Shown: piece after piece, positions 3,238 through 12,744 of the stretch | How positions within the stretch are numbered: the first letter of the stretch is position 1 | Layout of the letters: each line of letters starts with the position of its first letter | Assembly (NCBI RefSeq): GCF_000829415.1 | Contig: NZ_AP014637.1 | Coordinates: forward strand, 2,864,001-2,928,000 | DNA: 64,000 bases | Direction of reading: 5' to 3' | DNA from: Pseudomonas sp. StFLB209 | GTDB taxonomy: Bacteria; Pseudomonadota; Gammaproteobacteria; Pseudomonadales; Pseudomonadaceae | Notes under the pieces: generated by a model | What the model saw: the letters and a program-made list of their open reading frames with translations, nothing else | Database searches by the model: none | What the model was told of the DNA's origin: nothing | Program-made: the position numbers and the translations under genes

Positions 3238-5655
3238 TTATGGCAGCGCGTAGGCCACGACGTAATCACCGCGTTGCGTCGCCTGGCGCGCACCACCGGC
3301 GGTGATCACCACGTATTGCTTGCCGGTTTTGGGCGACACGTAAGTCATCGGCCCACCCTGGCTGCCGACCGGCAGTCGGGCTTTCCAGACTTCTTCACCG
3401 TTGGCGCTGTTGAAGGCGCGCAGGTAGAAGTCCTGGGTACCGGCGATGAATACCAGACCGCCTTGGGTCGACAGGGTGCCGCCGAGGGTCGGCAGGCCGA
3501 TCTTGATCGGCAAGCCCATGGCGATGCCAAGGGGGCCGGTGTCTTCCACGGTCCCGACCGGCACTTGCCAGGCGATTTTCTGGGTTTTCATGTCGATGGC
3601 GGTCAGGGTGCCGAACGGCGGCGCCTGGCACGGAATGCCGGCCACCGACAGGAAGCGGTTCTTGTTCACCGCATAGGGGGTGCCTTTGAGCGGCACCGCG
3701 CCCATGCCGGTGTTGATCGCTTCACCGCCGGAGGAAGCCTTGGCATCTTTCTGCGCAGGAATCATCTGCACCCACAGGCCCAGACGCATGTCGTTGACGA
3801 AGATGAAGCCGTGCACCGGGTCGGTCGACAGGCCGCCCCAGTTAAGGCCACCCAGCGAGCCTGGAAAACTCAGCGATTTATCGGTACCTGGCGCGGTGTA
3901 CAGCCCGTCGTAGCGCATCCCCTTGAAGTCGATACGGCACAGCAATTGGTCATACGGCGTGGCGCCCCACATGTCCGACTCGGTTAGCTGCTGGGCGCCG
4001 ATCTGCGGCATGCCCACCGACTTTGGCTGGCTGGGCGAATACGGCTCGTTGGGGATGTTGCCGGCCTTGACCGGCACTTGATCCACTTGGGTCAGCGGCT
4101 GGCCAGTGGCGCGGTCGAGGACGAAGATCTGCCCGGCCTTGGTGCCGATCACCAGTGCCGGCACACTTTTGCCGTCTTTACCGGTGAAGTCGATCAGGCT
4201 CGGCTGCATCGGCAGGTCGAAATCCCACAGGTCATTATGGACCGTCTGGTACACCCACTTTTCTGCGCCGCTGGTGGCGTCCAGGGCCAGGATCGAAGCG
4301 CCATAGGTGTGATCCAGGCGAGTACGCTCGACACCGTATAGGTCGGTGGACGAACTGCCCATCGGCAGGAACACGGTGTTCATCGCCGGATCGTAGGACA
4401 TCGGTGCCCAGCTGTTCGGCGTGCTGCGCACGTAGGTCTGGCCTTCGGCCGGTGCGTTGCGCTCTTGCGGGTTGCCCGGGTCGAAGGCCCAGCGCTGTTG
4501 CCCGGTGACCACGTCGAAGCCACGAATCACGCCGCCTGGCATGTCGGTCTGGACGTTGTCGGCGACACGTCCGCCGACCACCACCGTGGTGCCGGCCATC
4601 AGCGGGGCCGAAGACAATTGATAGTGCGAGTCCGGGACATTGCCCAGACCGGCTTTCAGGTCAACCTGACCGTTGTTGCCAAAGCCCTGGCAGAATTCGC
4701 CGGTGTCGGCGTCGACGGCGATCAGGCGTGCGTCGATGGTGTTGGTCAGCAGGCGGCGCTGACAGTTGGCGCCGGCCGTTACGTTGACTGCGGTCACCGC
4801 TGAATTGCCTGGCTGGCTTGGCTGTACCAGCGCTGCGGTGGCGTCGAAGTACGCCAGGCCCCGGCAGCGCTGCCATACGCCGGATTGAGCGTTGATTTGG
4901 TTTTTCCACAGCTCTTTGCCGGTGTCGGCATCCAGCGCAATGATGTTGTTGTGTGGTGTGCAGATAAACACCTTGTTGCCGATTTGCAGCGGGGTGAGCT
5001 GGTCTTCGGCGCCATTGCCGTTGCTCTGCGCAATATCACCGGTGCGGTAGGTCCAGGCCACTTGCAGCTTGTCGACATTGCCACGGTTGATCTGGTCCAG
5101 CGCAGCAAAGCGGCTGCCACCTTCGGTATTGCCGTAATGCGCCCAGTCTTTCTGCGCGTTGGCCGGGTCCACCGGGGTCAGGCCAGGGCCGCTGCCATTG
5201 GGTGCGACACTGGGATGGGCGACAAACATATTGCCCACCGCGATCACCAGTGCGACTGCCAGTACGCCAGCGATGCCATACGGCGCCTTGCCCGGTACGG
5301 CACCACTGGCGCGCACCAGCTGTGGATAGACCAGCAGGATCACCAGACCCATGACAGAGAACATGAACAGCCGCGAGAACAGCGGCCAGAATTGCAGGCC
5401 GGCGTCCAGCACCGCCCAAATGGCCGTGCCGATCAGGAACACTGCGAACAGTTGTGCGCCGAGCGGCTTGCGCAACGCAATCAACAGACCGCAAGCAGCC
5501 ATAACCAGACCGCCGATCAGGAAATACCAGCTACCGCCCAGACGGACCAGCGAGAAGCCGCCGGCCGCAAGGGCCAGACCAAGCAAAAGGGTAATGATGC
5601 CGAGCCCGAGCAGGATGAACCTGACCAGGCCGGAGAGGGGTTGTGGCTGTGTCAT
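3238..5655 (-). CDS. gcd: Membrane-bound PQQ-dependent glucose dehydrogenase
   Basis: This enzyme oxidises D-glucose to gluconolactone in the periplasm and passes electrons to ubiquinone. It is 805 residues long, close to the E. coli enzyme (796). The first 145 or so residues contain five hydrophobic segments, the membrane anchor with its quinone site. The rest is an eight-bladed PQQ propeller with repeated LDADTGKELW/VDADTGE blade motifs. The catalytic aspartate and the PQQ-contacting lysine match D478 (in NDLWDFD) and K506 (in VIGTKAGQIFVLD). It stands alone, with its own TATAAT box and a palindromic operator upstream. In Pseudomonas this reaction opens the gluconate/2-ketogluconate route and acidifies the medium. 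Confidence 0.97.
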   Translation of the reverse strand: MTQPQPLSGLVRFILLGLGIITLLLGLALAAGGFSLVRLGGSWYFLIGGLVMAACGLLIALRKPLGAQLFAVFLIGTAIWAVLDAGLQFWPLFSRLFMFSVMGLVILLVYPQLVRASGAVPGKAPYGIAGVLAVALVIAVGNMFVAHPSVAPNGSGPGLTPVDPANAQKDWAHYGNTEGGSRFAALDQINRGNVDKLQVAWTYRTGDIAQSNGNGAEDQLTPLQIGNKVFICTPHNNIIALDADTGKELWKNQINAQSGVWQRCRGLAYFDATAALVQPSQPGNSAVTAVNVTAGANCQRRLLTNTIDARLIAVDADTGEFCQGFGNNGQVDLKAGLGNVPDSHYQLSSAPLMAGTTVVVGGRVADNVQTDMPGGVIRGFDVVTGQQRWAFDPGNPQERNAPAEGQTYVRSTPNSWAPMSYDPAMNTVFLPMGSSSTDLYGVERTRLDHTYGASILALDATSGAEKWVYQTVHNDLWDFDLPMQPSLIDFTGKDGKSVPALVIGTKAGQIFVLDRATGQPLTQVDQVPVKAGNIPNEPYSPSQPKSVGMPQIGAQQLTESDMWGATPYDQLLCRIDFKGMRYDGLYTAPGTDKSLSFPGSLGGLNWGGLSTDPVHGFIFVNDMRLGLWVQMIPAQKDAKASSGGEAINTGMGAVPLKGTPYAVNKNRFLSVAGIPCQAPPFGTLTAIDMKTQKIAWQVPVGTVEDTGPLGIAMGLPIKIGLPTLGGTLSTQGGLVFIAGTQDFYLRAFNSANGEEVWKARLPVGSQGGPMTYVSPKTGKQYVVITAGGARQATQRGDYVVAYALP

Positions 5656-5684
5656 TTTGTAGCACCCGTGTTTGAATGCCGGCG

Positions 5685-5715
5685 ATTATAAACATCAAAA
5701 ACTAACCAGTTAGTT
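5685..5715 (-). promoter_or_regulatory. gcd promoter -10 box and palindromic operator
   Basis: Reading toward gcd, a perfect TATAAT (5685-5690) lies 30 bases before the start codon. Just upstream at 5700-5715 is a perfect inverted repeat, AACTAAC-CA-GTTAGTT, occupying the place of the -35 element. No good -35 hexamer is present at 17-base spacing. This is the pattern of a repressor- or activator-controlled promoter. The repeat does not resemble the PtxS site (TGAAACCGGTTTCA). A TetR-family protein is a reasonable guess only. Confidence 0.6.
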
Positions 5716-5784
5716 AATTGTTCGAAAATCGCACACTTTTTTACCCGGAGTTCGGAGCCCGGCACGGATTGTGACTTGAAATGC

Positions 5785-5810
5785 GGTGGGAACGAGCTTG
5801 CTCGTGAAGG
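5785..5810 (+). repeat. REP-like palindrome
   Basis: The segment starts GGTGGGAACGAG, contains the dyad CGAGCTTGCTCG and ends GTGAAGG. It is a typical Pseudomonas REP core. The same 26-base word with one change occurs in inverse orientation at 28730-28755. Confidence 0.7.
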
Positions 5811-5882
5811 CGCAATTACCTTCATCACCATCACCGATGTAGGGTCTATACCGGCCTTTGCGTCGCAGCGTCGCCCGGCCGG

Positions 5883-7133
5883 TTACGGGGTGCGGGGCGA
5901 GGTTTGCAACCAGTGCAGCATGCCTTGCGCTGCGGCGCGCCCGCTGGCAAAGCAGGCGGTCAGCAGGTAGCCGCCAGTCGGTGCTTCCCAGTCGAGCATC
6001 TCGCCGGCGCAGAAAACCCCAGGCAACGCTTTGAGCATCAGGTGCTGATCCAGGCTTTCGAAGGTTACGCCTCCGGCCGTGCTGATTGCCTCGTCCAGCG
6101 GGCGAGTGCGCACCAGTTGCAGGGGCAGGGCTTTGATGGCTTTGGCCAGCGCCTGCGGGTCATCGAACTGCGCCTTGCTGGTCAATTCGCGCAATAGTGC
6201 AGCCTTGACGCCTTCCAGGCCCAGTTGGCCGCTCAGGTGTTTGGCCATCGAGCGTGAGCCGCGCGGTTTTTCCAGCGCCGCCTGCACCGCTTGCACGGAC
6301 TTGCCCGGCAGCAGGTCAATGTGGACAGTCGCTGAGCCAGCGCGATTGATCCCGTCCCGGATCGGCGCTGACAGGGCGTAGACCAGGCTGCCCTCAACCC
6401 CGGTTTCGGTCACGACGCACTCCCCTGTGCGCATCGGCAAGTTATCCACAGACATGGCGATGTTTTTCAGTGGCGCGCCGGCGAATTTGCTGCGCAGCAC
6501 GTCGCTCCAGGTGTTGACCTCGAAGCCGCAGTTACTGGGCTGTAATGCCGCAACCTCAACGCCTTGATCCTGCAGCCAGGGTCGCCAGGCACCGTCGGAC
6601 CCCAAGCGTGCCCAACTGGCGCCGCCTAGCGCCAGCAGTACCGCATCGGCGCGTTCGCCGCGCTCGGCATCAGGGCCGCGCAGGCGCAGGCTGCCGTCAG
6701 GGTTCCAGCCCAGCCAGCGATGCCGGGTGTGCAGATTCACGCCACTGTCGCGCAGACGCTTGAGCCAGGCGCGCAGCAAGGGCGCGGCTTTCATGTCGGC
6801 AGGAAATACCCGCCCAGAGCTGCCGATAAAGGTCTCGATGCCCAGCCCATGAATCCACTGACGCAGGGCATCGGCATCGAACGTCTGCAAAAAAGGCTCA
6901 ATCATCGGCGCGCGCTGAGCATAGCGCGACAAGAATGCCGACCAGGGCTCGGAGTGGGTGATATTCATCCCGCCGACCCCGGCCAGCAGAAACTTGCGCC
7001 CCACCGACGGCATGGCGTCGTACAGATCGACCTTGAGACCAGCCTGGCTCAGCACTTCAGCCGCCATCAGACCGGCAGGACCGCCGCCGATGATGGCAAT
7101 TGATGAGTAGGCTAGGGCGGTGGGTGAGGTCAT
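5883..7133 (-). CDS. HI0933/TIGR03862-type FAD-dependent flavoprotein
   Basis: A 416-residue flavoprotein. The N-terminus carries a dinucleotide-binding fold (IIGGGPAGLMAAEVLSQAGL), followed directly by the family signature SVGRKFLLAGVGGMNITHSEP. The C-terminus has the second FAD-contact region (ISTAGGVTFESLD and GVFCAGEMLDWEAPTGGYLL). The family (HI0933/YhiN-like, Rossmann-fold oxidoreductases) has no established substrate. The gene is monocistronic: about 230 bases separate it from gcd and 439 bases from the next upstream gene. Confidence 0.88.
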   Translation of the reverse strand: MTSPTALAYSSIAIIGGGPAGLMAAEVLSQAGLKVDLYDAMPSVGRKFLLAGVGGMNITHSEPWSAFLSRYAQRAPMIEPFLQTFDADALRQWIHGLGIETFIGSSGRVFPADMKAAPLLRAWLKRLRDSGVNLHTRHRWLGWNPDGSLRLRGPDAERGERADAVLLALGGASWARLGSDGAWRPWLQDQGVEVAALQPSNCGFEVNTWSDVLRSKFAGAPLKNIAMSVDNLPMRTGECVVTETGVEGSLVYALSAPIRDGINRAGSATVHIDLLPGKSVQAVQAALEKPRGSRSMAKHLSGQLGLEGVKAALLRELTSKAQFDDPQALAKAIKALPLQLVRTRPLDEAISTAGGVTFESLDQHLMLKALPGVFCAGEMLDWEAPTGGYLLTACFASGRAAAQGMLHWLQTSPRTP

Positions 7134-7572
7134 GGGCAGGCCGTGGTTGGTGCGAAAAGGGCGGATAGTCTATCCAATCGGAAAATTTTCAAAAGCGTCA
7201 GCTTCGGTGAGTACCACTTAGGACAAGTAGGAAACTGATGAGTGATCCAACACCCGTAGCCCCGGGATTCTCTGGCGCTGAACCTGCGCTTGGGTGGATG
7301 GGCTGTGTACGATCACCCATAGAGCACAGGCGTTGCTCGCGGACACTATCGCCCCTCAATTTGGGAGGTAGTGGTCTAAGGGCGAAGCGCTAATTTACCT
7401 GCTATTTCGCAAGCCTGACATTCTCATCCTCTGGACGGCACATCGATTTTTGATGCCAGGGAGGAAGAAAAGCATCCAGGAGCAAGGCTGAGCCAGCTAA
7501 GAAGAATTGGCCGGCTCGCATGCACACATGCCGCTATGCCATGGATCCGCAAGCCGCCCCTACAGTGCAGGG
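7134..7572. other. 439-base region without a supported gene
   Basis: The stretch holds the promoter side of the flavoprotein gene. A short forward frame at 7238-7393 (51 codons from ATG, with AGGA six bases upstream) starts MSDPTPVAPGFSG and ends GLRAKR. It has no recognisable domain and an arginine-rich end, so I do not call it a gene. Composition is more mixed than in the neighbours, which suggests a decayed insertion. No tRNA or clear terminator is visible. Confidence 0.5.
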
Positions 7573-8214
7573 CTACTTACCTAACTTACGCAACTCATCA
7601 GACTCGACAATCCGTACCCCATCCTGTTCTTCCAGCGCCAGGCGCCACAGGGCGCGGGCCAGGCTGCAGGCTTCGATGGCGCCGTACTTGCCCGGCAGCA
7701 GCTTGGCGATGGGCGCTGCCAACTGTTCTGCCCAGCGTGTCTCAGGACGGTTGCCGACCAGCAGGGAAGGGCGGGCGATGGTCAGTTGTGGCCAGTGCTG
7801 CGCTTGCAGGGCCTGCTCCATCTCGCCTTTTATGCGGTTGTAGAACACGCTGGACTTCGGGTCGGCACCAATGGCGCTGATCACCAGCAGATGCCGGGCA
7901 CCCAGCGCACGGGCGCGGGCCGCGAAAGCCAGTACCAGATCCAGGTCGACGGCGCGGAAGGCTTCCTGGGAGCCGGCCTGTTTGATGGTGGTCCCCAGGC
8001 AGCAGAAAGCGATATCCACCCGGCCATCGAGTTGCGGCAGCAGGCCGGCAAGATCGCCGATAGGGTTTTCCAGGTGCGAATGTTTCACCAGCGGCCGACG
8101 GGTCGGGGCCAGGACCCGGCTGACAGTGGGTTCATTGAGCAGGCGATCGAGCAGGTGTTCGCCTGTCAGTCCTGTGGCGCCTGCGAGCAGGATGTGTTGC
8201 GGCGTCAAGTACAT
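7573..8214 (-). CDS. Atypical short-chain dehydrogenase, NAD(P)H-binding (HTATIP2-like)
   Basis: A 213-residue single-domain Rossmann protein. The nucleotide-binding loop is [18 protein letters not shown] near the N-terminus. Mid-protein features are [24 protein letters not shown] and the [12 protein letters not shown] segment, which carries the YxxxK pair. The overall pattern matches atypical SDRs related to HTATIP2/TIP30 and to ubiquitous Pseudomonas NAD(P)H-binding proteins. The substrate is unknown. It follows the MORN/C13 lipoprotein gene on the same strand with a 42-base gap, so the two may be co-transcribed. Confidence 0.8.
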
Positions 8215-8256
8215 GATGTTTCTCCCTTGATCTGTCAGAAGAACCGGGTTCTTCGT

Positions 8257-9981
8257 CTAGCGGCTACTGGAAATCTTCGCATCCTTGCGAGTCAACGTCG
8301 TATTCAGCGCGCGTTCTGCCTGGTTTTTGCGCAGTTGTTGCCAGCGGGCGACCACCCCCTTTGGCGCCCATATCTGGGGCTCGGATGCCTCGAAATTGTC
8401 TTCGATCTCGCGGCGTGCGACATACGCACTGGCCTGATCGAAAGCCTGTTGCAGGTTATCTGTTTCGACCAGCGCCTTGGCGAATAGTGCATCACCGAAG
8501 TAGGTGAAGTCAGCCTCTTCCGTGCAGCCGAACGAAACCCGGTCGGCGCGTGCGGCGGTCATGATCAGCGTACGTTCGTCTTTGAGCGCCGGAATGAACC
8601 CGCCGGAATAGCAGGCCGAGATCACGATGATCTTGTCGCGATTGTGCAGCGGCGCCATGACTGTGGCCAGTTGGTCGGCCGGCAGGTCGGACAGTGACAG
8701 GCGCGGCTGGTCGAGTACCAGTTGATGATCGTGCGTGCCGTGGCTGGTCAGGTAGATAAAGATCAGGTCTTCCGGGCCGCTGCGCTGGGCCAGGGTCTGG
8801 ATCGCCCGGCTGATGGTCTCGCGGGTTGCCATGGGGCGATCGGCCATGTGGTCGCGGTGGTTGACCAGGCTGACCTGGCCGTGAGCGCCAAAGCGGGTCT
8901 TGAGCAGGTTGCCGACATAATCCGCCTCGCGCTTGAATACGCTCTGTTTGCCGTCGCCGCCGACCACCAGGCTGTATAGCTCCACCGCCGGGGTTGAGGC
9001 CGGCACCGCCTTGAGGGCGTTATCGAGCAGTACACCCTGGGCCAGCAAGCCGGTTTCCAGCGTGTCGGGCAGCAGCTCGCCCTTGGCATCGCGGACCAGT
9101 TGGCCATTGGCCCAGACGCCACGCAGCACCGTGCCGTCGGCTTGAGTCAGGGTGCCTTGGCCCTGATAGGTGTCATTGGCGAAACCACCGGTATAGGTGC
9201 TGCCATCGGCCAAGTGCAATTTGCCTTCGCCGTTGAAGCGCCAGTTGCTGAACTCGCCCTGATAGCGGCTGCCATCGGTGCCGATCAGTTCGCCTTTGCC
9301 GGTGAAGGCGCCTGCGCTGAACTGGCCGCTCCAGACATCGCCGTCGCTGTTCTCATAGCGGCCCTTGCCGTCGAGCTGGTTATCGTGAAAGTTGCCAATG
9401 TATTGATCGCCCTCGGCACTGCTGAACGTGCCCTTGCCTTGCAACTGGCCGTTGACGAAGCGGCCGCTGTACTGATTGCCGCTGGCATCGCTGCGCATCC
9501 CTTCGCCATTGGGTTTGCCGCGGCTGAACTGGCCCTGATACTGGGTGCCGTCATCCAGCTCCAGGCGGCCGGCGCCGTCGTAAAGGTCAGCCTTGAACCC
9601 GCCACGGTAGAGCAGGTCCTTTTCCTTGTAGGTCCCTTCACCCTCACGGCGGCCTTGCTTGAACGCACCCACGTAACTGCTGGTACGGGTGGTCAGAATG
9701 CCCTGGCCGCTGTAGAGGCCGTGCTCGAACCCGCCTTTATAGACATCCCCGTTGCTGGCCCGCCATTCACCCTGGCCATGCCACTGGCCGCGATCGAACT
9801 GACCCTGATACCAGCTGCCATTGGGGTAGTCGATACGTCCCTGACCTTGCAGCAGGCCGTTGACCAGATCGCCACGATAGCGTCCGCCATCCGGCAGGCG
9901 GCCGTCAGGCGGCAGCAGCGACTCGCCGTCTCCGCAGCCAGCGATCAGGAGGGTCAGTGCCAGTGGGGCAAGCGCGCGCAT
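8257..9981 (-). CDS. Lipoprotein with 12 MORN repeats and a C-terminal peptidase C13 (legumain/caspase-like) domain
   Basis: A 574-residue fusion. The signal peptide ends in the lipobox LIAG-C16. Between about residues 34 and 298 lie twelve MORN-type repeats spaced 22-23 residues apart (for example YQGQF, YKGGF, YSGRF, WSGQF). From about residue 335 a clan-CD cysteine peptidase begins (ELYSLVVGGDGKQSVFKREA). Its catalytic histidine is in YLTSHG (H414) and its cysteine in VISACYSGGF (C457). Both catalytic residues are intact. The ATG at 9981 is chosen over an upstream TTG. The predicted place is the envelope, anchored by lipid. In eukaryotes MORN repeats bind membranes or act as protein scaffolds; here neither substrate nor partner is known. 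A 42-base gap leads to the downstream SDR gene. Confidence 0.85.
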   Translation of the reverse strand: MRALAPLALTLLIAGCGDGESLLPPDGRLPDGGRYRGDLVNGLLQGQGRIDYPNGSWYQGQFDRGQWHGQGEWRASNGDVYKGGFEHGLYSGQGILTTRTSSYVGAFKQGRREGEGTYKEKDLLYRGGFKADLYDGAGRLELDDGTQYQGQFSRGKPNGEGMRSDASGNQYSGRFVNGQLQGKGTFSSAEGDQYIGNFHDNQLDGKGRYENSDGDVWSGQFSAGAFTGKGELIGTDGSRYQGEFSNWRFNGEGKLHLADGSTYTGGFANDTYQGQGTLTQADGTVLRGVWANGQLVRDAKGELLPDTLETGLLAQGVLLDNALKAVPASTPAVELYSLVVGGDGKQSVFKREADYVGNLLKTRFGAHGQVSLVNHRDHMADRPMATRETISRAIQTLAQRSGPEDLIFIYLTSHGTHDHQLVLDQPRLSLSDLPADQLATVMAPLHNRDKIIVISACYSGGFIPALKDERTLIMTAARADRVSFGCTEEADFTYFGDALFAKALVETDNLQQAFDQASAYVARREIEDNFEASEPQIWAPKGVVARWQQLRKNQAERALNTTLTRKDAKISSSR

Positions 9982-10111
9982 GTCAGGTCTCAAGGGGTAT
10001 GAATCGGCAGGGGCGGCCCAGGCTCGTTTCGAGCCTTGATGCCGTGATCAGAAGTATGCCGCAGGCTGTCAGGTTGACGAAACAGTCAGTAATGACTGTT
10101 TCGTACCAATA

Positions 10112-10251
10112 GGGCACCTCTAAAAACCACCTTCGTTGCCACCGTTGCGTTGAAAACAGGCTCAAAATGCTCATTTACAATCCGTAAACTGCGCTCTCTC
10201 GCCTGTTTTCGTCTTGCGCTGGCTGCCTCGCCTACGTTTTTAGAGGCACCC
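10112..10251. repeat. Dispersed element, family 1 copy A (140 bases, terminal inverted repeats)
   Basis: The ends are GGGCACCTCTAAAAAC and, inverted, GTTTTTAGAGGCACCC, matching at 14 of 16 positions. The interior holds the word GGCTCAAAATGCTCATTTAC followed by GTAAACTGCGCT. The same ends and core recur at 46032-46166, and the ends alone at 54535-54573. No reading frame is present, so it looks like a MITE-type element. Confidence 0.75.
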
Positions 10252-10259
10252 AATGGCCG

Positions 10260-10715
10260 TTACACGAAACACAAGGTCAGTGGTTCGGCAATGTAGGCCG
10301 GTTTCTCCTGGCCTTCGATTTCCATCGTGGCCGTGCCTTTGAGCAGCCACTGTCCAGGTTTTTTCTCGTTGACCTCGGTCAGCTGCAGCTTCAGGCGCAC
10401 CCGCGAGCCAACCGCCACCGGCTGAATGAAGCGCACGCTGTCCAGCCCGTAGTTAACCACCATCTTCAGGCCTTCAGGCAGGACCATCAGGTCGCCCATC
10501 AGCACCGGGATCAGTGACAGCGACAAAAAACCGTGGGCGATGGTGCCGCCAAACGGGGTCTTCGCGGCCTTGACCGGGTCGACATGGATGAACTGAAAAT
10601 CGCCGGTGGCTTCGGCAAACAGGTCAATACGCGCCTGGTCGATGCTCAGCCAGTCGGAACATCCCAGTTCCTTGCCAATGTATTGCGTGAGTTGGTGTGC
10701 CGGTACATAGGGCAT
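10260..10715 (-). CDS. MaoC-family (R)-specific enoyl-CoA hydratase, PhaJ4-like
   Basis: A 151-residue hot-dog-fold hydratase. The hydratase motif ATGDFQFIHVDP carries the catalytic pair D39 and H44, followed by TPFGGTIAHGFLSLSL, the conserved family segment. This family hydrates trans-2-enoyl-CoA to (R)-3-hydroxyacyl-CoA, linking beta-oxidation to polyhydroxyalkanoate synthesis. From memory the whole protein resembles P. aeruginosa PhaJ4. The start at 10715 is taken because GGAGA lies just upstream; the longer frame to 10862 runs through a dispersed repeat. It is monocistronic, with a family 1 element at its 3' side and a family 2 element at its 5' side. Confidence 0.88.
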   Translation of the reverse strand: MPYVPAHQLTQYIGKELGCSDWLSIDQARIDLFAEATGDFQFIHVDPVKAAKTPFGGTIAHGFLSLSLIPVLMGDLMVLPEGLKMVVNYGLDSVRFIQPVAVGSRVRLKLQLTEVNEKKPGQWLLKGTATMEIEGQEKPAYIAEPLTLCFV

Positions 10716-10763
10716 GGTTCTCTCCTTGATAATGAAATCTGCTATGGGGTGTTGACCTCGGCG

Positions 10764-10906
10764 CAATACTGTTCTGTTAGACCGGTGGTAGCCCGCTTGC
10801 TGGCGAAGACGGCGGCACATTCGCAGTAGATGCTGTGATTTTACCGGCCCTTTCGCGACCAAGGTCGCTCCCGCAAAGGCATGCGGCGCTTATTTGAACA
10901 GTATTG
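10764..10906. repeat. Dispersed element, family 2 copy A (143 bases)
   Basis: A perfect 11-base inverted repeat (CAATACTGTTC at 10764-10774, GAACAGTATTG at 10896-10906) bounds the segment. Its right half (10831-10902) aligns without gaps to 28711-28782, with 59 of 72 positions identical by my count. It includes REP-like hairpin sequence (CGCGACCAAGGTCGCTC). Confidence 0.7.
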
Positions 10907-11067
10907 GACCTCGGCGTGGTTGGGATGAAACGGCAACAGCCCCTAATGCAGGACCGCTGAAGATCAGCAGAGCCTGGCCATTAGGTCAAGTCTGCGGGAG
11001 TGTTATATGGCCGCAGGTTTGCCATGCTTATAATGAGCCCCGTACATTTGCATTTGCCGGAGTACGC

Positions 11068-11430
11068 ATGCTGCTACGAGGACTGACGGCGCTGGTGTTG
11101 TTCCAGTTGCTGGGGACTGCACTCAATCACCTGTTTATCCCCATCCTGCCGGGGCCGATCATTGGCATGATCTTGTTGCTGGGCTTTTTGATGGTGCGCG
11201 GGGAGGTCGATGAGCCGATCAGCCAGGCCGCGACCAGTCTGCTGCGTTACCTGCCATTGCTGCTGGTGCCGCCGGCGGTGGGGGTGATGGCTTATGCCGG
11301 GGCGATTGCCCGAGACTTCTGGGCGATCTTCGGCACCTTGGTGGTGTCGCTAGTGGTGTCGGTGGTGTTTGTCGGCGTATTGATGCAAAAACTCACCGAG
11401 CGCCAGGCCCGCCGTAAGGAAACCCCATGA
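11068..11430 (+). CDS. lrgA: CidA/LrgA-family membrane protein
   Basis: A 120-residue protein with four hydrophobic segments and the family features LFIPILPGPIIGMILL and LPLLLVPPAVGVM. LrgA/CidA proteins are holin-like inner-membrane proteins acting with LrgB/CidB partners. They have been linked to murein hydrolase control, cell death and, more recently, export of small organic acids such as pyruvate. The start ATG at 11068 follows CCGGAG; the frame extends upstream without a good site. It overlaps lrgB by four bases (ATGA), so translation is coupled. The C-terminus is basic (RQARRKETP). Confidence 0.88.
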   Translation: MLLRGLTALVLFQLLGTALNHLFIPILPGPIIGMILLLGFLMVRGEVDEPISQAATSLLRYLPLLLVPPAVGVMAYAGAIARDFWAIFGTLVVSLVVSVVFVGVLMQKLTERQARRKETP

Positions 11431-12143
11431 TGCTCGACTGGCACGGCGCCTGGGGGGCGGTGATCAACCACCCGTTGTTTGGCATCGGTATCACGCTGGG
11501 CGCCTATCAACTGGCGATGGCCGCATACGAAAAAAGCCGCTTGGTGCTCCTGCAGCCAGTGCTGGTGTCGATGGCCATTCTGATTGGCATTTTATTGGCC
11601 TGTGGCCTGAGTTATGAGCAGTACCGCGACAGCACCGCGATCCTCGGCACGTTGCTGGGGCCCGCCACGGTTGCACTTGCCGTGCCGCTTTATCTGAATT
11701 TGCGCCGGATTCGTCAGTTGTTATGGCCAACCTTGACTACGCTGGTGCTGGGTGGTGTGTTGGTGACCGGTCTGTGTCTGGCGCTGGGTGAGTTGCTGGG
11801 GGCCGATCATATGATCCTCATGACCCTGGCGCCCAAGTCGGTGACGTCACCGATTGCCATGCTGGTGGCCGAGCAAATGGGCGGCGTCGCTGCGCTGGCT
11901 GCGGTGTTCGTACTGATTACCGGCGTGCTGGGGGCTATCCTCGGCCCGCTACTGTTGTCATTGAGCGGGGTGGATAATCCTGCTGCGCGCGGCATGGCAC
12001 TGGGCTTGACCGCCCATGCGGTGGGTACTGCCCAGGCGTTGCAGGAAGGCGAGGAGGCGGGTGCGTTTGCCGCACTGGCCATGAGTCTGATGGGTGTGGC
12101 GACGGCGTTGTGTCTGCCGCTGGCGGTCTCTGTTGTCGTGTAA
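11427..12143 (+). CDS. lrgB: LrgB/CidB-family membrane protein
   Basis: A 238-residue polytopic membrane protein of the usual family length. The hallmark is LAPKSVTSPIAML around residues 132-144, followed by a glycine- and leucine-rich transmembrane stretch and the conserved RGMALGLTAHAVGTAQAL segment. It pairs with LrgA, encoded four bases out of register just upstream. A LON-domain protein gene follows after 10 bases, so all three form one operon. The function (hydrolase control or metabolite export) is inferred from the family. Confidence 0.9.
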   Translation: MMLDWHGAWGAVINHPLFGIGITLGAYQLAMAAYEKSRLVLLQPVLVSMAILIGILLACGLSYEQYRDSTAILGTLLGPATVALAVPLYLNLRRIRQLLWPTLTTLVLGGVLVTGLCLALGELLGADHMILMTLAPKSVTSPIAMLVAEQMGGVAALAAVFVLITGVLGAILGPLLLSLSGVDNPAARGMALGLTAHAVGTAQALQEGEEAGAFAALAMSLMGVATALCLPLAVSVVV

Positions 12144-12153
12144 GGAGCTTGTT

Positions 12154-12744
12154 ATGACGTTGCCGCTGTTTCCATTGAACACCGTGTTGTTTCCGGGCTG
12201 CGTGCTGGACCTGCAATTGTTCGAGGCCCGCTATCTGGACATGATCGGTCGCTGCATGAAGCGCAATGAAGGCTTCGGCGTGGTGTGCATCACCCAAGGT
12301 AGCGAGGTCGGTGTTGCGCCGGGCGGCTACTCGCTGATCGGCTGTGAAGCCTTGGTGCGCGACTTCCAGCAACAGGACAACGGCCTGCTGGGCATCCGTG
12401 TGGTGGGTGGGCGACGCTTCCGGGTTGTCAGTGCTGAAGTCCAGCGCGACCAACTGCTGGTCGCCGATGTGCACTGGCTTGAAGATCATCAAGAGCGGCC
12501 TTTGCAGGAAGAAGACGCCGACCTGGTGGCGCTGCTGCATGCACTGGCCGAACACCCGATGGTCGCTTCGCTGGACATGGGCCTGGAAGCGGCAGGCCAG
12601 CAATCGCTGGGTAACCAACTGGCCTACCTGCTGCCATTCGATGAGCAGGACAAGATCGAACTGCTGGAAATCGACGACCCCGAAGAGCGCCTGGTCGCCA
12701 TTCAGAGCCTGCTCGACGAAATGCAGGGCGACCTGCAGGCGTAA
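12154..12744 (+). CDS. LON peptidase substrate-binding-domain protein
   Basis: A 196-residue protein made almost entirely of the Lon N-terminal substrate-recognition domain. It opens LPLFPLNTVLFPGCVLDLQLFEARYLDMI, the domain's signature start, and later shows GIRVVGGRRFRV. There is no AAA+ or protease part. Such stand-alone LAN/PUA-like proteins are common in Pseudomonas and lack a proven role. GGAG lies seven bases before the start at 12154. Its place ten bases after lrgB suggests co-transcription with the holin-like pair. Confidence 0.88.
   Translation: MTLPLFPLNTVLFPGCVLDLQLFEARYLDMIGRCMKRNEGFGVVCITQGSEVGVAPGGYSLIGCEALVRDFQQQDNGLLGIRVVGGRRFRVVSAEVQRDQLLVADVHWLEDHQERPLQEEDADLVALLHALAEHPMVASLDMGLEAAGQQSLGNQLAYLLPFDEQDKIELLEIDDPEERLVAIQSLLDEMQGDLQA

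What the first reader, a model, noticed from the sequence alone, without database searches (positions are those of the whole stretch)
8257..9981. MORN-repeat lipoprotein fused to a caspase-like C13 peptidase
Twelve MORN-type repeats at 22-23-residue spacing follow a lipobox and lead into a peptidase C13 domain whose His (H414) and Cys (C457) are both present. A lipid-anchored scaffold joined to a legumain/caspase-type protease is an unusual design in a bacterium, and I know of no established function. It could be an envelope protease with proximity activation or a cell-death effector. The downstream SDR gene is 42 bases away and may be a partner.
Basis: partly seen in the sequence, partly recalled or inferred. 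Interest (0 to 1): 0.7.

Follow-up and report, generated by a model that had tools for sequence, protein, structure and literature searches.

The report
Membrane-tethered legumain-like protease on MORN rod
Pseudomonas carries a lipid-anchored, rod-mounted relative of the legumain/caspase proteases that appears to sit in the cell envelope; databases already list it under its parts, but what it cuts is unknown, and a multi-membrane-span relative in Acinetobacter probably corresponds to a gene reported to alter membrane permeability.

Summary
In detail: a minus-strand ORF (8257-9981, 574 aa) has a lipobox, 11 clear MORN repeats plus a degenerate twelfth, and a Peptidase_C13 domain with an intact His414/Cys457 dyad. 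The model (pLDDT 92.9) matches MORN1 and legumain structures. It is not exotic: 149 of 149 genomes searched in its genus carry it, and databases already name it 'C13 family peptidase'. Elsewhere the same C13 core rides on other anchors: membrane span+MORN, five spans (Acinetobacter, Psychrobacter), DUF4124, or one span. Best reading: an envelope-tethered periplasmic cysteine peptidase for envelope upkeep, with MORN as spacer/scaffold; substrate unknown, legumain-type Asn specificity not predicted. The SDR neighbour is syntenic in 20 of 20 Pseudomonadaceae loci but persists where the peptidase gene is missing, so it is not an obligate partner. I found no support for a cell-death effector. The likely functional relative is Acinetobacter abrp, linked by reviews to membrane permeability.

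The parts
8257..9981 (-). MORN-C13 lipoprotein gene, 574 aa (ATG at 9981, stop 8257-8259)
   Evidence: ORF and translation; Pfam MORN + Peptidase_C13; single C13 locus in its genome
9934..9981 (-). Signal peptide and lipobox, residues 1-16 (C16 is the expected lipidated Cys); following residues G-D-G
   Evidence: Pattern test: 41 of 41 loci L006-L046 and 119 of 120 of P0001-P0120 have it; C-G-D-G in 36 of 41
9085..9882 (-). MORN array, residues 34-299 (11 clear repeats + 1 degenerate; 12 predicted beta-hairpins)
   Evidence: structural match to MORN1
9010..9063 (-). Helix 307-324 directly before the catalytic domain, conserved across anchor types (E309, Q315, L318, L319)
   Evidence: E309 377/381, Q315 370/381, L319 378/381; helix in both models
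8347..8991 (-). Peptidase C13 catalytic domain, about residues 331-545
8740..8742 (-). Catalytic His414 codon
   Evidence: 381 of 381
8611..8613 (-). Catalytic Cys457 codon
   Evidence: 380 of 381; exception P0076
8524..8526 (-). Second invariant cysteine, Cys486 (motif S-F-G-C)
   Evidence: 381 of 381; only other Cys besides C16 and C457
7573..8214 (-). Downstream SDR-type NAD(P)-binding gene, 42 bases away; syntenic, co-transcription possible but not shown
   Evidence: Pfam Epimerase 24.8 bits and NAD_binding_4 22.3 bits over their cut-offs, NAD_binding_10 and HIM1 just below; adjacent in 20 of 20 Pseudomonadaceae loci, 15-42 base gap in 16 of 20
10260..10715 (-). Upstream MaoC-family dehydratase (context, not a part of the system)
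   Evidence: present upstream in 17 of 20 Pseudomonadaceae loci

Best explanation
A membrane-tethered periplasmic cysteine endopeptidase. The lipobox anchors the protein, probably in the outer membrane facing the periplasm (inferred). The 12-hairpin MORN array forms an extended solenoid that holds the C-terminal legumain-fold (clan CD, C13) domain away from the membrane and may dimerise or dock lipid or protein partners (inferred). The His414/Cys457 domain cuts one or few envelope proteins as part of routine envelope maintenance (inferred). Shown by sequence: domains, dyad, lipobox, conservation, exchange of anchors. Not shown: activity, location, substrate.
For: Catalytic residues near-invariant: H414 381/381, C457 380/381. 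High-confidence model with the two expected folds. Export signal in 41 of 41 loci of the family. The same C13 core is tied to membranes in several ways: membrane span+MORN, five membrane spans with positive-inside bias placing C13 outside the cytoplasm in 12 of 17 multi-span proteins, single span. Present in 149 of 149 genomes of the genus, which fits housekeeping. The probable P. aeruginosa orthologue PA4016 is listed in an envelope proteomics table. Acinetobacter abrp, a C13 peptidase gene, is linked by reviews to cell-membrane permeability, and an A. baumannii C13 gene is modestly up early in polymyxin exposure; that genus's C13 core is 41% identical over 231 aa.
Against: No activity, localisation or substrate data for this protein. 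pTM is 0.60, so the placing of the MORN rod against the C13 domain is uncertain. Most MORN-C13 proteins outside the family show no lipobox by the same pattern (11 of 120 of P0241-P0360 do), so the outer-membrane reading cannot be general. Five of the 17 multi-span proteins gave four or six spans, and in two of them (L101, L102) the charge bias is reversed under that count. Genome G168 of the same family lacks the gene, and transposon insertions in PA4016 are viable without a confirmed C. elegans phenotype, so it is dispensable. The reviews disagree on the direction of the abrp effect, and I could not read the primary paper. No conserved neighbour gives a substrate.
Confidence: 0.55

Rival explanations
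1. Transpeptidase or ligase rather than plain protease: like the C13 members PIG-K (GPI transamidase) and plant peptide ligases, it joins a cleaved protein to an amine (lipid, peptidoglycan or protein) at the envelope.
Against: Those matches share the fold only; no C-terminal sorting signal was searched for, and no conserved gene pairing was found outside the family. Ligases and proteases of this family cannot be told apart by fold.
Confidence: 0.1
2. Proximity- or damage-activated death or stress effector: MORN oligomerises on a signal and activates the caspase-like domain, which kills the cell or aborts infection.
For: Caspase-like fold; weak generic caspase hits (PADLOC E 1.3e-5; NCBIfam caspase_w_EACC1 E 4.6e-9 but far under its cut-off); lrgAB (holin/antiholin-like) genes lie close by.
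Against: In all 149 sampled genomes of the genus; conserved chromosomal context in the 20 family loci compared; lrgAB is divergently placed, with MaoC between in most of those loci. An exported protein is badly placed for sensing cytoplasmic infection. Neighbours were not scanned with PADLOC except the SDR (no hit).
Confidence: 0.07
3. Functional unit with the downstream SDR: the peptidase and the NAD(P)-binding protein act in one pathway.
For: Same strand and adjacent in 20 of 20 Pseudomonadaceae loci, kept even where MaoC and lrgAB are gone (L074); gap of 15-42 bases in 16 of 20.
Against: Not adjacent in 20 of 20 loci outside the family although 15 of those 20 genomes have an SDR relative; SDR kept in G168 without the peptidase; [quoted passage not shown] the SDR has no evident export signal (read by eye), so the two products would sit in different compartments.
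Confidence: 0.1
4. Catalytically idle scaffold: MORN and the C13 fold serve as a structural envelope protein.
For: No activity has been shown; one database cluster (P0076) has lost the catalytic Cys.
Against: Dyad kept in 380 of 381 aligned rows, hard to explain without catalysis.
Confidence: 0.05

Closest known systems
Peptidase family C13 (legumain / asparaginyl endopeptidase; PF01650)
   Different: No C-terminal legumain-type prodomain visible; membrane tether and MORN rod; legumain Glu beside A-C is an invariant Ser here, legumain D231 equivalent varies (Q/D/R)
Acinetobacter C13 family peptidase, probably abrp (AbrP)
   Same: C13 core 41% identical over 231 aa; same dyad, S-F-G-C and pre-domain helix; membrane-tethered by prediction
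   Different: Five membrane spans instead of lipobox+MORN; neighbours fghA, tsaB, rpe instead of SDR and MaoC
Eukaryotic MORN1 (Trypanosoma, Toxoplasma, Plasmodium)
   Same: MORN solenoid: 6t4r E 2.7e-21, TM-score by target length 0.84
   Different: Stand-alone repeat protein in eukaryotes (recalled); here exported and fused to a peptidase
GPI transamidase subunit PIG-K
   Different: Works inside a large complex on GPI signals (recalled); no such partners were looked for here

Membership tests
Peptidase C13 (PF01650) | Score above Pfam cut-off | tested here: met
   138.7 bits against 22.8
Peptidase C13 (PF01650) | Catalytic His and Cys in S-H-G and [E/D/S]-A-C contexts | tested here: met
   H414 381/381, C457 380/381; aligns with legumain
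Legumain (asparaginyl endopeptidase proper) | Asn-reading S1 residues (Arg44, Glu187, Asp231; numbering recalled) | tested here: not met
   Glu187 position is S455 in 381/381; Asp231 position D497 is Q 122, D 114, R 105, E 17, K 12, G 9, N 1, A 1; Arg44 equivalent not placed surely
Legumain (asparaginyl endopeptidase proper) | C-terminal prodomain (LSAM) | tested here: not met
   Only a 29-residue, largely helical tail after residue 545; feature recalled
Legumain (asparaginyl endopeptidase proper) | Cleavage after Asn | not testable with these tools
   needs peptidase assay
Caspase (Peptidase_C14, PF00656) | Score above Pfam cut-off | tested here: not met
   Not listed at E <= 0.001 for this protein; relatives such as P0073 and P0096 carry a precomputed PF00656 hit
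EACC1-associated caspase (NCBIfam NF047832) | Score above curated cut-off | tested here: not met
   36.1 bits against 140, E 4.6e-9
MORN-repeat proteins (PF02493) | Repeated 23-residue MORN units above cut-off | tested here: met
   122.7 bits; 11 regular units; 12 hairpins
Bacterial lipoprotein | Short signal peptide with lipobox before Cys | tested here: met
   41/41 loci of the family; crude pattern that also gives false hits inside membrane spans
Bacterial lipoprotein | Lipidation and outer-membrane sorting | not testable with these tools
   +2 is Gly, not Asp; sorting rule recalled
AbrP (Acinetobacter C13 peptidase) | Homologous C13 core | tested here: met
   41% over 231 aa to an A. baumannii record; the published abrp sequence itself was not available
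AbrP (Acinetobacter C13 peptidase) | Same full-length architecture | tested here: not met
   five membrane spans, no MORN
GPI transamidase | Partner subunits and C-terminal sorting signals | not tested
   -
Anti-phage caspase effectors (PADLOC) | Specific model match and defence neighbours | tested here: inconclusive
   weak generic 'caspase' E 1.3e-5; SDR no hit; the other neighbours were not scanned with PADLOC

The most novel reading that the evidence does not exclude
Proteobacteria share a largely unrecognised family of envelope-tethered legumain-fold enzymes, one catalytic core on swappable anchors, that acts as a processing enzyme or transpeptidase for envelope proteins with a specificity different from legumain. 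Catalysis might be gated by redox state through the invariant Cys457/Cys486 pair. Loss of the enzyme changes envelope permeability in both Pseudomonas and Acinetobacter.
Probability: 0.15. Interest if true: 0.8.

Novelty: new variant of a known kind. Interest (0 to 1): 0.45.

Why it matters
It is a near-universal gene of its genus with an apparently intact active site and no assigned substrate. If the periplasmic-protease reading holds, it adds a legumain-type cysteine peptidase to the Gram-negative envelope protease set, and it gives the poorly understood abrp permeability effect in Acinetobacter a biochemical hypothesis testable in laboratory strains.

Tried and rejected
Death effector or defence reading: rejected as the main one. 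Conserved partner outside the family: all-against-all comparison of ORFs in 20 outside loci found only C13 itself in all 20; other clusters (E < 1e-15) join 2-3 ORFs. Attenuator or terminator between C13 and SDR: no hairpin recurring across the 20 loci (judged by eye on single folds); the window's own gap has a short inverted repeat without a T-run. RNA family at 7000-12500: none at gathering score. Foreign origin: G+C of the gene's kilobases (0.61-0.63) is ordinary for the first 20 kb. Fixed ruler idea for MORN: a pattern count gives 10-11 in 51 distinct Pseudomonadaceae domains but 3-11 in 22 other MORN-bearing ones, so length is fixed only within the family. Phage carriage: two 'Acinetobacter phage MD-2021a' records match; the one I opened (H8) holds ordinary chromosomal genes (yeaZ/tsaB, rpe, fghA) in the order of an A. 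baumannii record, so probably host DNA; the other (H9) was not opened. The structure-library rows list no fold for the membrane part of the Acinetobacter protein; only its C13 part filled the list, and that model is weaker (pLDDT 72.3).

Paper searches (10 of 10 used) listed no study of the MORN-C13 fusion that I recognised; the library lacks most subscription papers, including the primary abrp paper. One search found nothing; I saw listings with abstract openings only. Seen as passages only: PMC8003822, PMC11615727, PMC5915739, PMC10203620, PMC5346588, PMC8768575, PMC4872528, PMC10218405, PMC3406104, PMC4148453, PMC7835679, PMC2654510. PMC5915739 (MORN proteins co-purified with Fusobacterium FtsX/EnvC) and PMC4148453 (a predicted BfmR motif at PA4017) were not used.

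Full report
WHAT IS THERE. The ORF lies on the minus strand, 8257-9981, 574 aa. It has a 15-residue signal ending before C16 (L-I-A-G-C), 11 regular MORN repeats at 22-23-residue spacing plus a degenerate twelfth, a short helix, and a C13 domain to about residue 545. Shuffled sequence gives at most 5 such MORN motifs in 2000 trials. Pfam scores are 122.7 bits (MORN) and 138.7 bits (Peptidase_C13), far over the cut-offs. It is the only C13 locus found in its 6.33-Mb genome, and the three places matching the MORN model there all lie in this gene. The genomes searched are unnamed; I take the window's genus and family to be Pseudomonas and Pseudomonadaceae from its named database relatives and from the P. 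aeruginosa protein, 60% identical.

ACTIVE SITE. In 381 C-terminal sequences (the window, 360 database proteins, some of them at 100% to the window, and 20 outside loci), H414 is kept in 381 and C457 in 380. G415, S455, S483, G485, C486, E525, S533 and P535 are kept in all 381. The 360 proteins are the top 120 of three searches and are heavily redundant. The one exception for C457 is P0076. The protein has only three cysteines: C16, C457 and C486; C486 aligns with a legumain cysteine in S-Y-A-C. Two of the three legumain residues that, from memory, read Asn in the S1 pocket are not kept (S455 instead of Glu; D497 variable), so asparaginyl specificity is not predicted; the third I could not place surely.

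DISTRIBUTION. 149 of 149 genomes of the genus have a match; most of the listed ones cover nearly the full length, a few are partial or split, and five listed genomes show a stop codon within the matched stretch (G001, G053, G106, G116, G144), which I did not examine. In a sample of the order, 102 of 293 genomes match the full-length query, but that count includes MORN-only proteins. PF01650 matches 43 of 61 genomes of the family of G360 (Moraxellaceae, judged), 24 of 229 in the class sample (20 over the cut-off) and 39 of 249 in the phylum sample (36 over the cut-off); weak rows there are probably other caspase-like proteins. In IMG/VR, 14 stretches matched a pattern but none encoded a relative. 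Seven plasmid-collection records match, five of them Acinetobacter, three of those of chromosome size (3.7-4.1 Mb).

ONE CORE, MANY ANCHORS. Of 156 loci (L006-L161), 147 held a C13 motif by pattern and 9 were dropped; they give 114 distinct domains: 51 Pseudomonadaceae MORN proteins, 22 others with three or more MORN units, and 41 with none. The ones without MORN include five-span proteins (Acinetobacter, Psychrobacter and others), a DUF4124 fusion (L103, DUF4124 1.3e-13) and single-span or signal-peptide-only forms. The lipobox is a family trait: 41 of 41 loci L006-L046 and 119 of 120 of P0001-P0120, but 11 of 120 of the diverse MORN-C13 set P0241-P0360; the pattern is crude. Of 17 multi-span proteins tested by hydropathy, 12 have five spans, and all 12 have more Lys/Arg on the side of the N-terminus, which puts C13 outside the cytoplasm; 3 gave six spans and 2 four, and two of the six-span ones have the reverse bias under that count. 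On a 77-row tree the three architecture labels need 7 changes against 24.6 in shuffles (least possible 2), and strongly supported branches force at least two changes for MORN; the bootstrap had not settled and deep forks are weak. The helix before the domain (E309 377/381, Q315 370/381, L319 378/381) goes with the core in both the MORN and five-span types.

NEIGHBOURS. In 20 of 20 Pseudomonadaceae loci the SDR follows on the same strand, MaoC precedes in 17 of 20, and lrgA-lrgB is present in 19 of 20; of the nine window neighbours tested, none was found in any of 20 loci outside the family. The C13-SDR gap, measured to the start of the SDR match, is 15-42 bases in 16 of 20 and 69-123 in 4. Genome G168, same family, has no PF01650 match, yet MaoC and SDR lie about 160 bases apart in the same order: the peptidase gene is missing and the SDR is kept. 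SDR relatives occur, unlinked, in 15 of 20 outside genomes with C13. So the two genes may be co-transcribed, but PMC3406104 judged PA4016 most likely a single-gene unit, and functional dependence is not supported.

FUNCTIONAL CLUES FROM PRINT. A P. aeruginosa record has the order mpg-DedA-LON-lrgB-lrgA-MaoC-C13-SDR-yceK-ubiX-mpl. With lrgAB = PA4014-PA4013 (PMC2654510, passage) and PA4016 between PA4015 and PA4017 (PMC3406104, passages), the gene is PA4016 by gene order (inferred, not checked on PAO1 itself). PA4016 insertions are viable; one allele in a delta-exoU background was attenuated in C. elegans, a second allele in wild type was not, and the gene was dropped by those authors. PA4016 is in the envelope proteomics table of PMC7835679, with low ratios in two MFS-overproducing strains as I read the row. 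Acinetobacter: one C13 match each in the 6 sampled genomes of genus g115, named Acinetobacter through; 41% core identity over 231 aa to an A. baumannii-labelled record, itself 75% identical over 456 residues to an annotated A. baumannii 'peptidase C13 family protein'. Reviews tie abrp, 'peptidase C13 family', to membrane permeability, growth and susceptibility, but they contradict each other on direction, and the primary paper was not available. That abrp is this gene rests on its description as C13 and on single copy. ABBFA_002915 (peptidase C13) is modestly up (0.74) in the early-stage column under polymyxin and down (-0.28) in the late one (PMC4872528).

MECHANISM. Shown here: domains, dyad, export signal, conservation, anchor exchange. 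Inferred: outer-membrane site, periplasmic face, proteolysis, substrate among envelope proteins, rod as spacer or scaffold. MORN number is nearly constant in the family (10-11 by pattern) and varies 3-11 elsewhere, which fits a spacer tuned by lineage more than a universal ligand site. This is the best reading at 0.55; rivals are listed with what would refute them.

NOVELTY. Databases already annotate the protein ('C13 family peptidase', 'MORN motif-containing protein'), so the gene and its domains are not new. The ten paper searches listed no description of the fusion or of the exchange of anchors around one core that I recognised. I rate it a new variant of a known kind, interest 0.45.

Noticed in passing
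10109-10254: About 140-bp element with 19-nt terminal inverted repeats just upstream of the gene; 40 matches in the genome are listed (its own included), so a MITE-like repeat.
   Followed up: partly
10077-10104: Perfect 12-nt inverted repeat (4-nt loop) between the repeat element and the gene start; possible regulatory site or hairpin.
   Followed up: no
L250 (G168), about 6087-7335: Locus without the MORN-C13 gene between MaoC and SDR in a member of the same family.
   Followed up: yes
P0076: Database cluster of 56 members (a representative named Pseudomonas amygdali pv. morsprunorum) with Tyr at the catalytic Cys position.
   Followed up: no
L103:5957-6880: DUF4124 fused to a C13 peptidase, with no MORN.
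   Followed up: partly
L090:7024-7398 and L098:5546-5905: A related small ORF of 120-125 aa lies next to the C13 gene in two genomes of family f28.
   Followed up: no
L252 (CAKLQH020000046.1): Record labelled Acinetobacter phage MD-2021a holds ordinary Acinetobacter chromosomal genes, probably host DNA.
   Followed up: partly
L251 (CP109682.1): A 425-kb P. aeruginosa record labelled plasmid carries the chromosomal-type block mpg-lrgAB-C13-SDR-ubiX-mpl.
   Followed up: no
3238-7133: The window has a large quinoprotein-dehydrogenase-like ORF (named by eye) and a TIGR03862 flavoprotein gene after the SDR; neither was found in any of the 20 Pseudomonadaceae loci compared, which reach about 5 kb beyond the SDR.
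   Followed up: no
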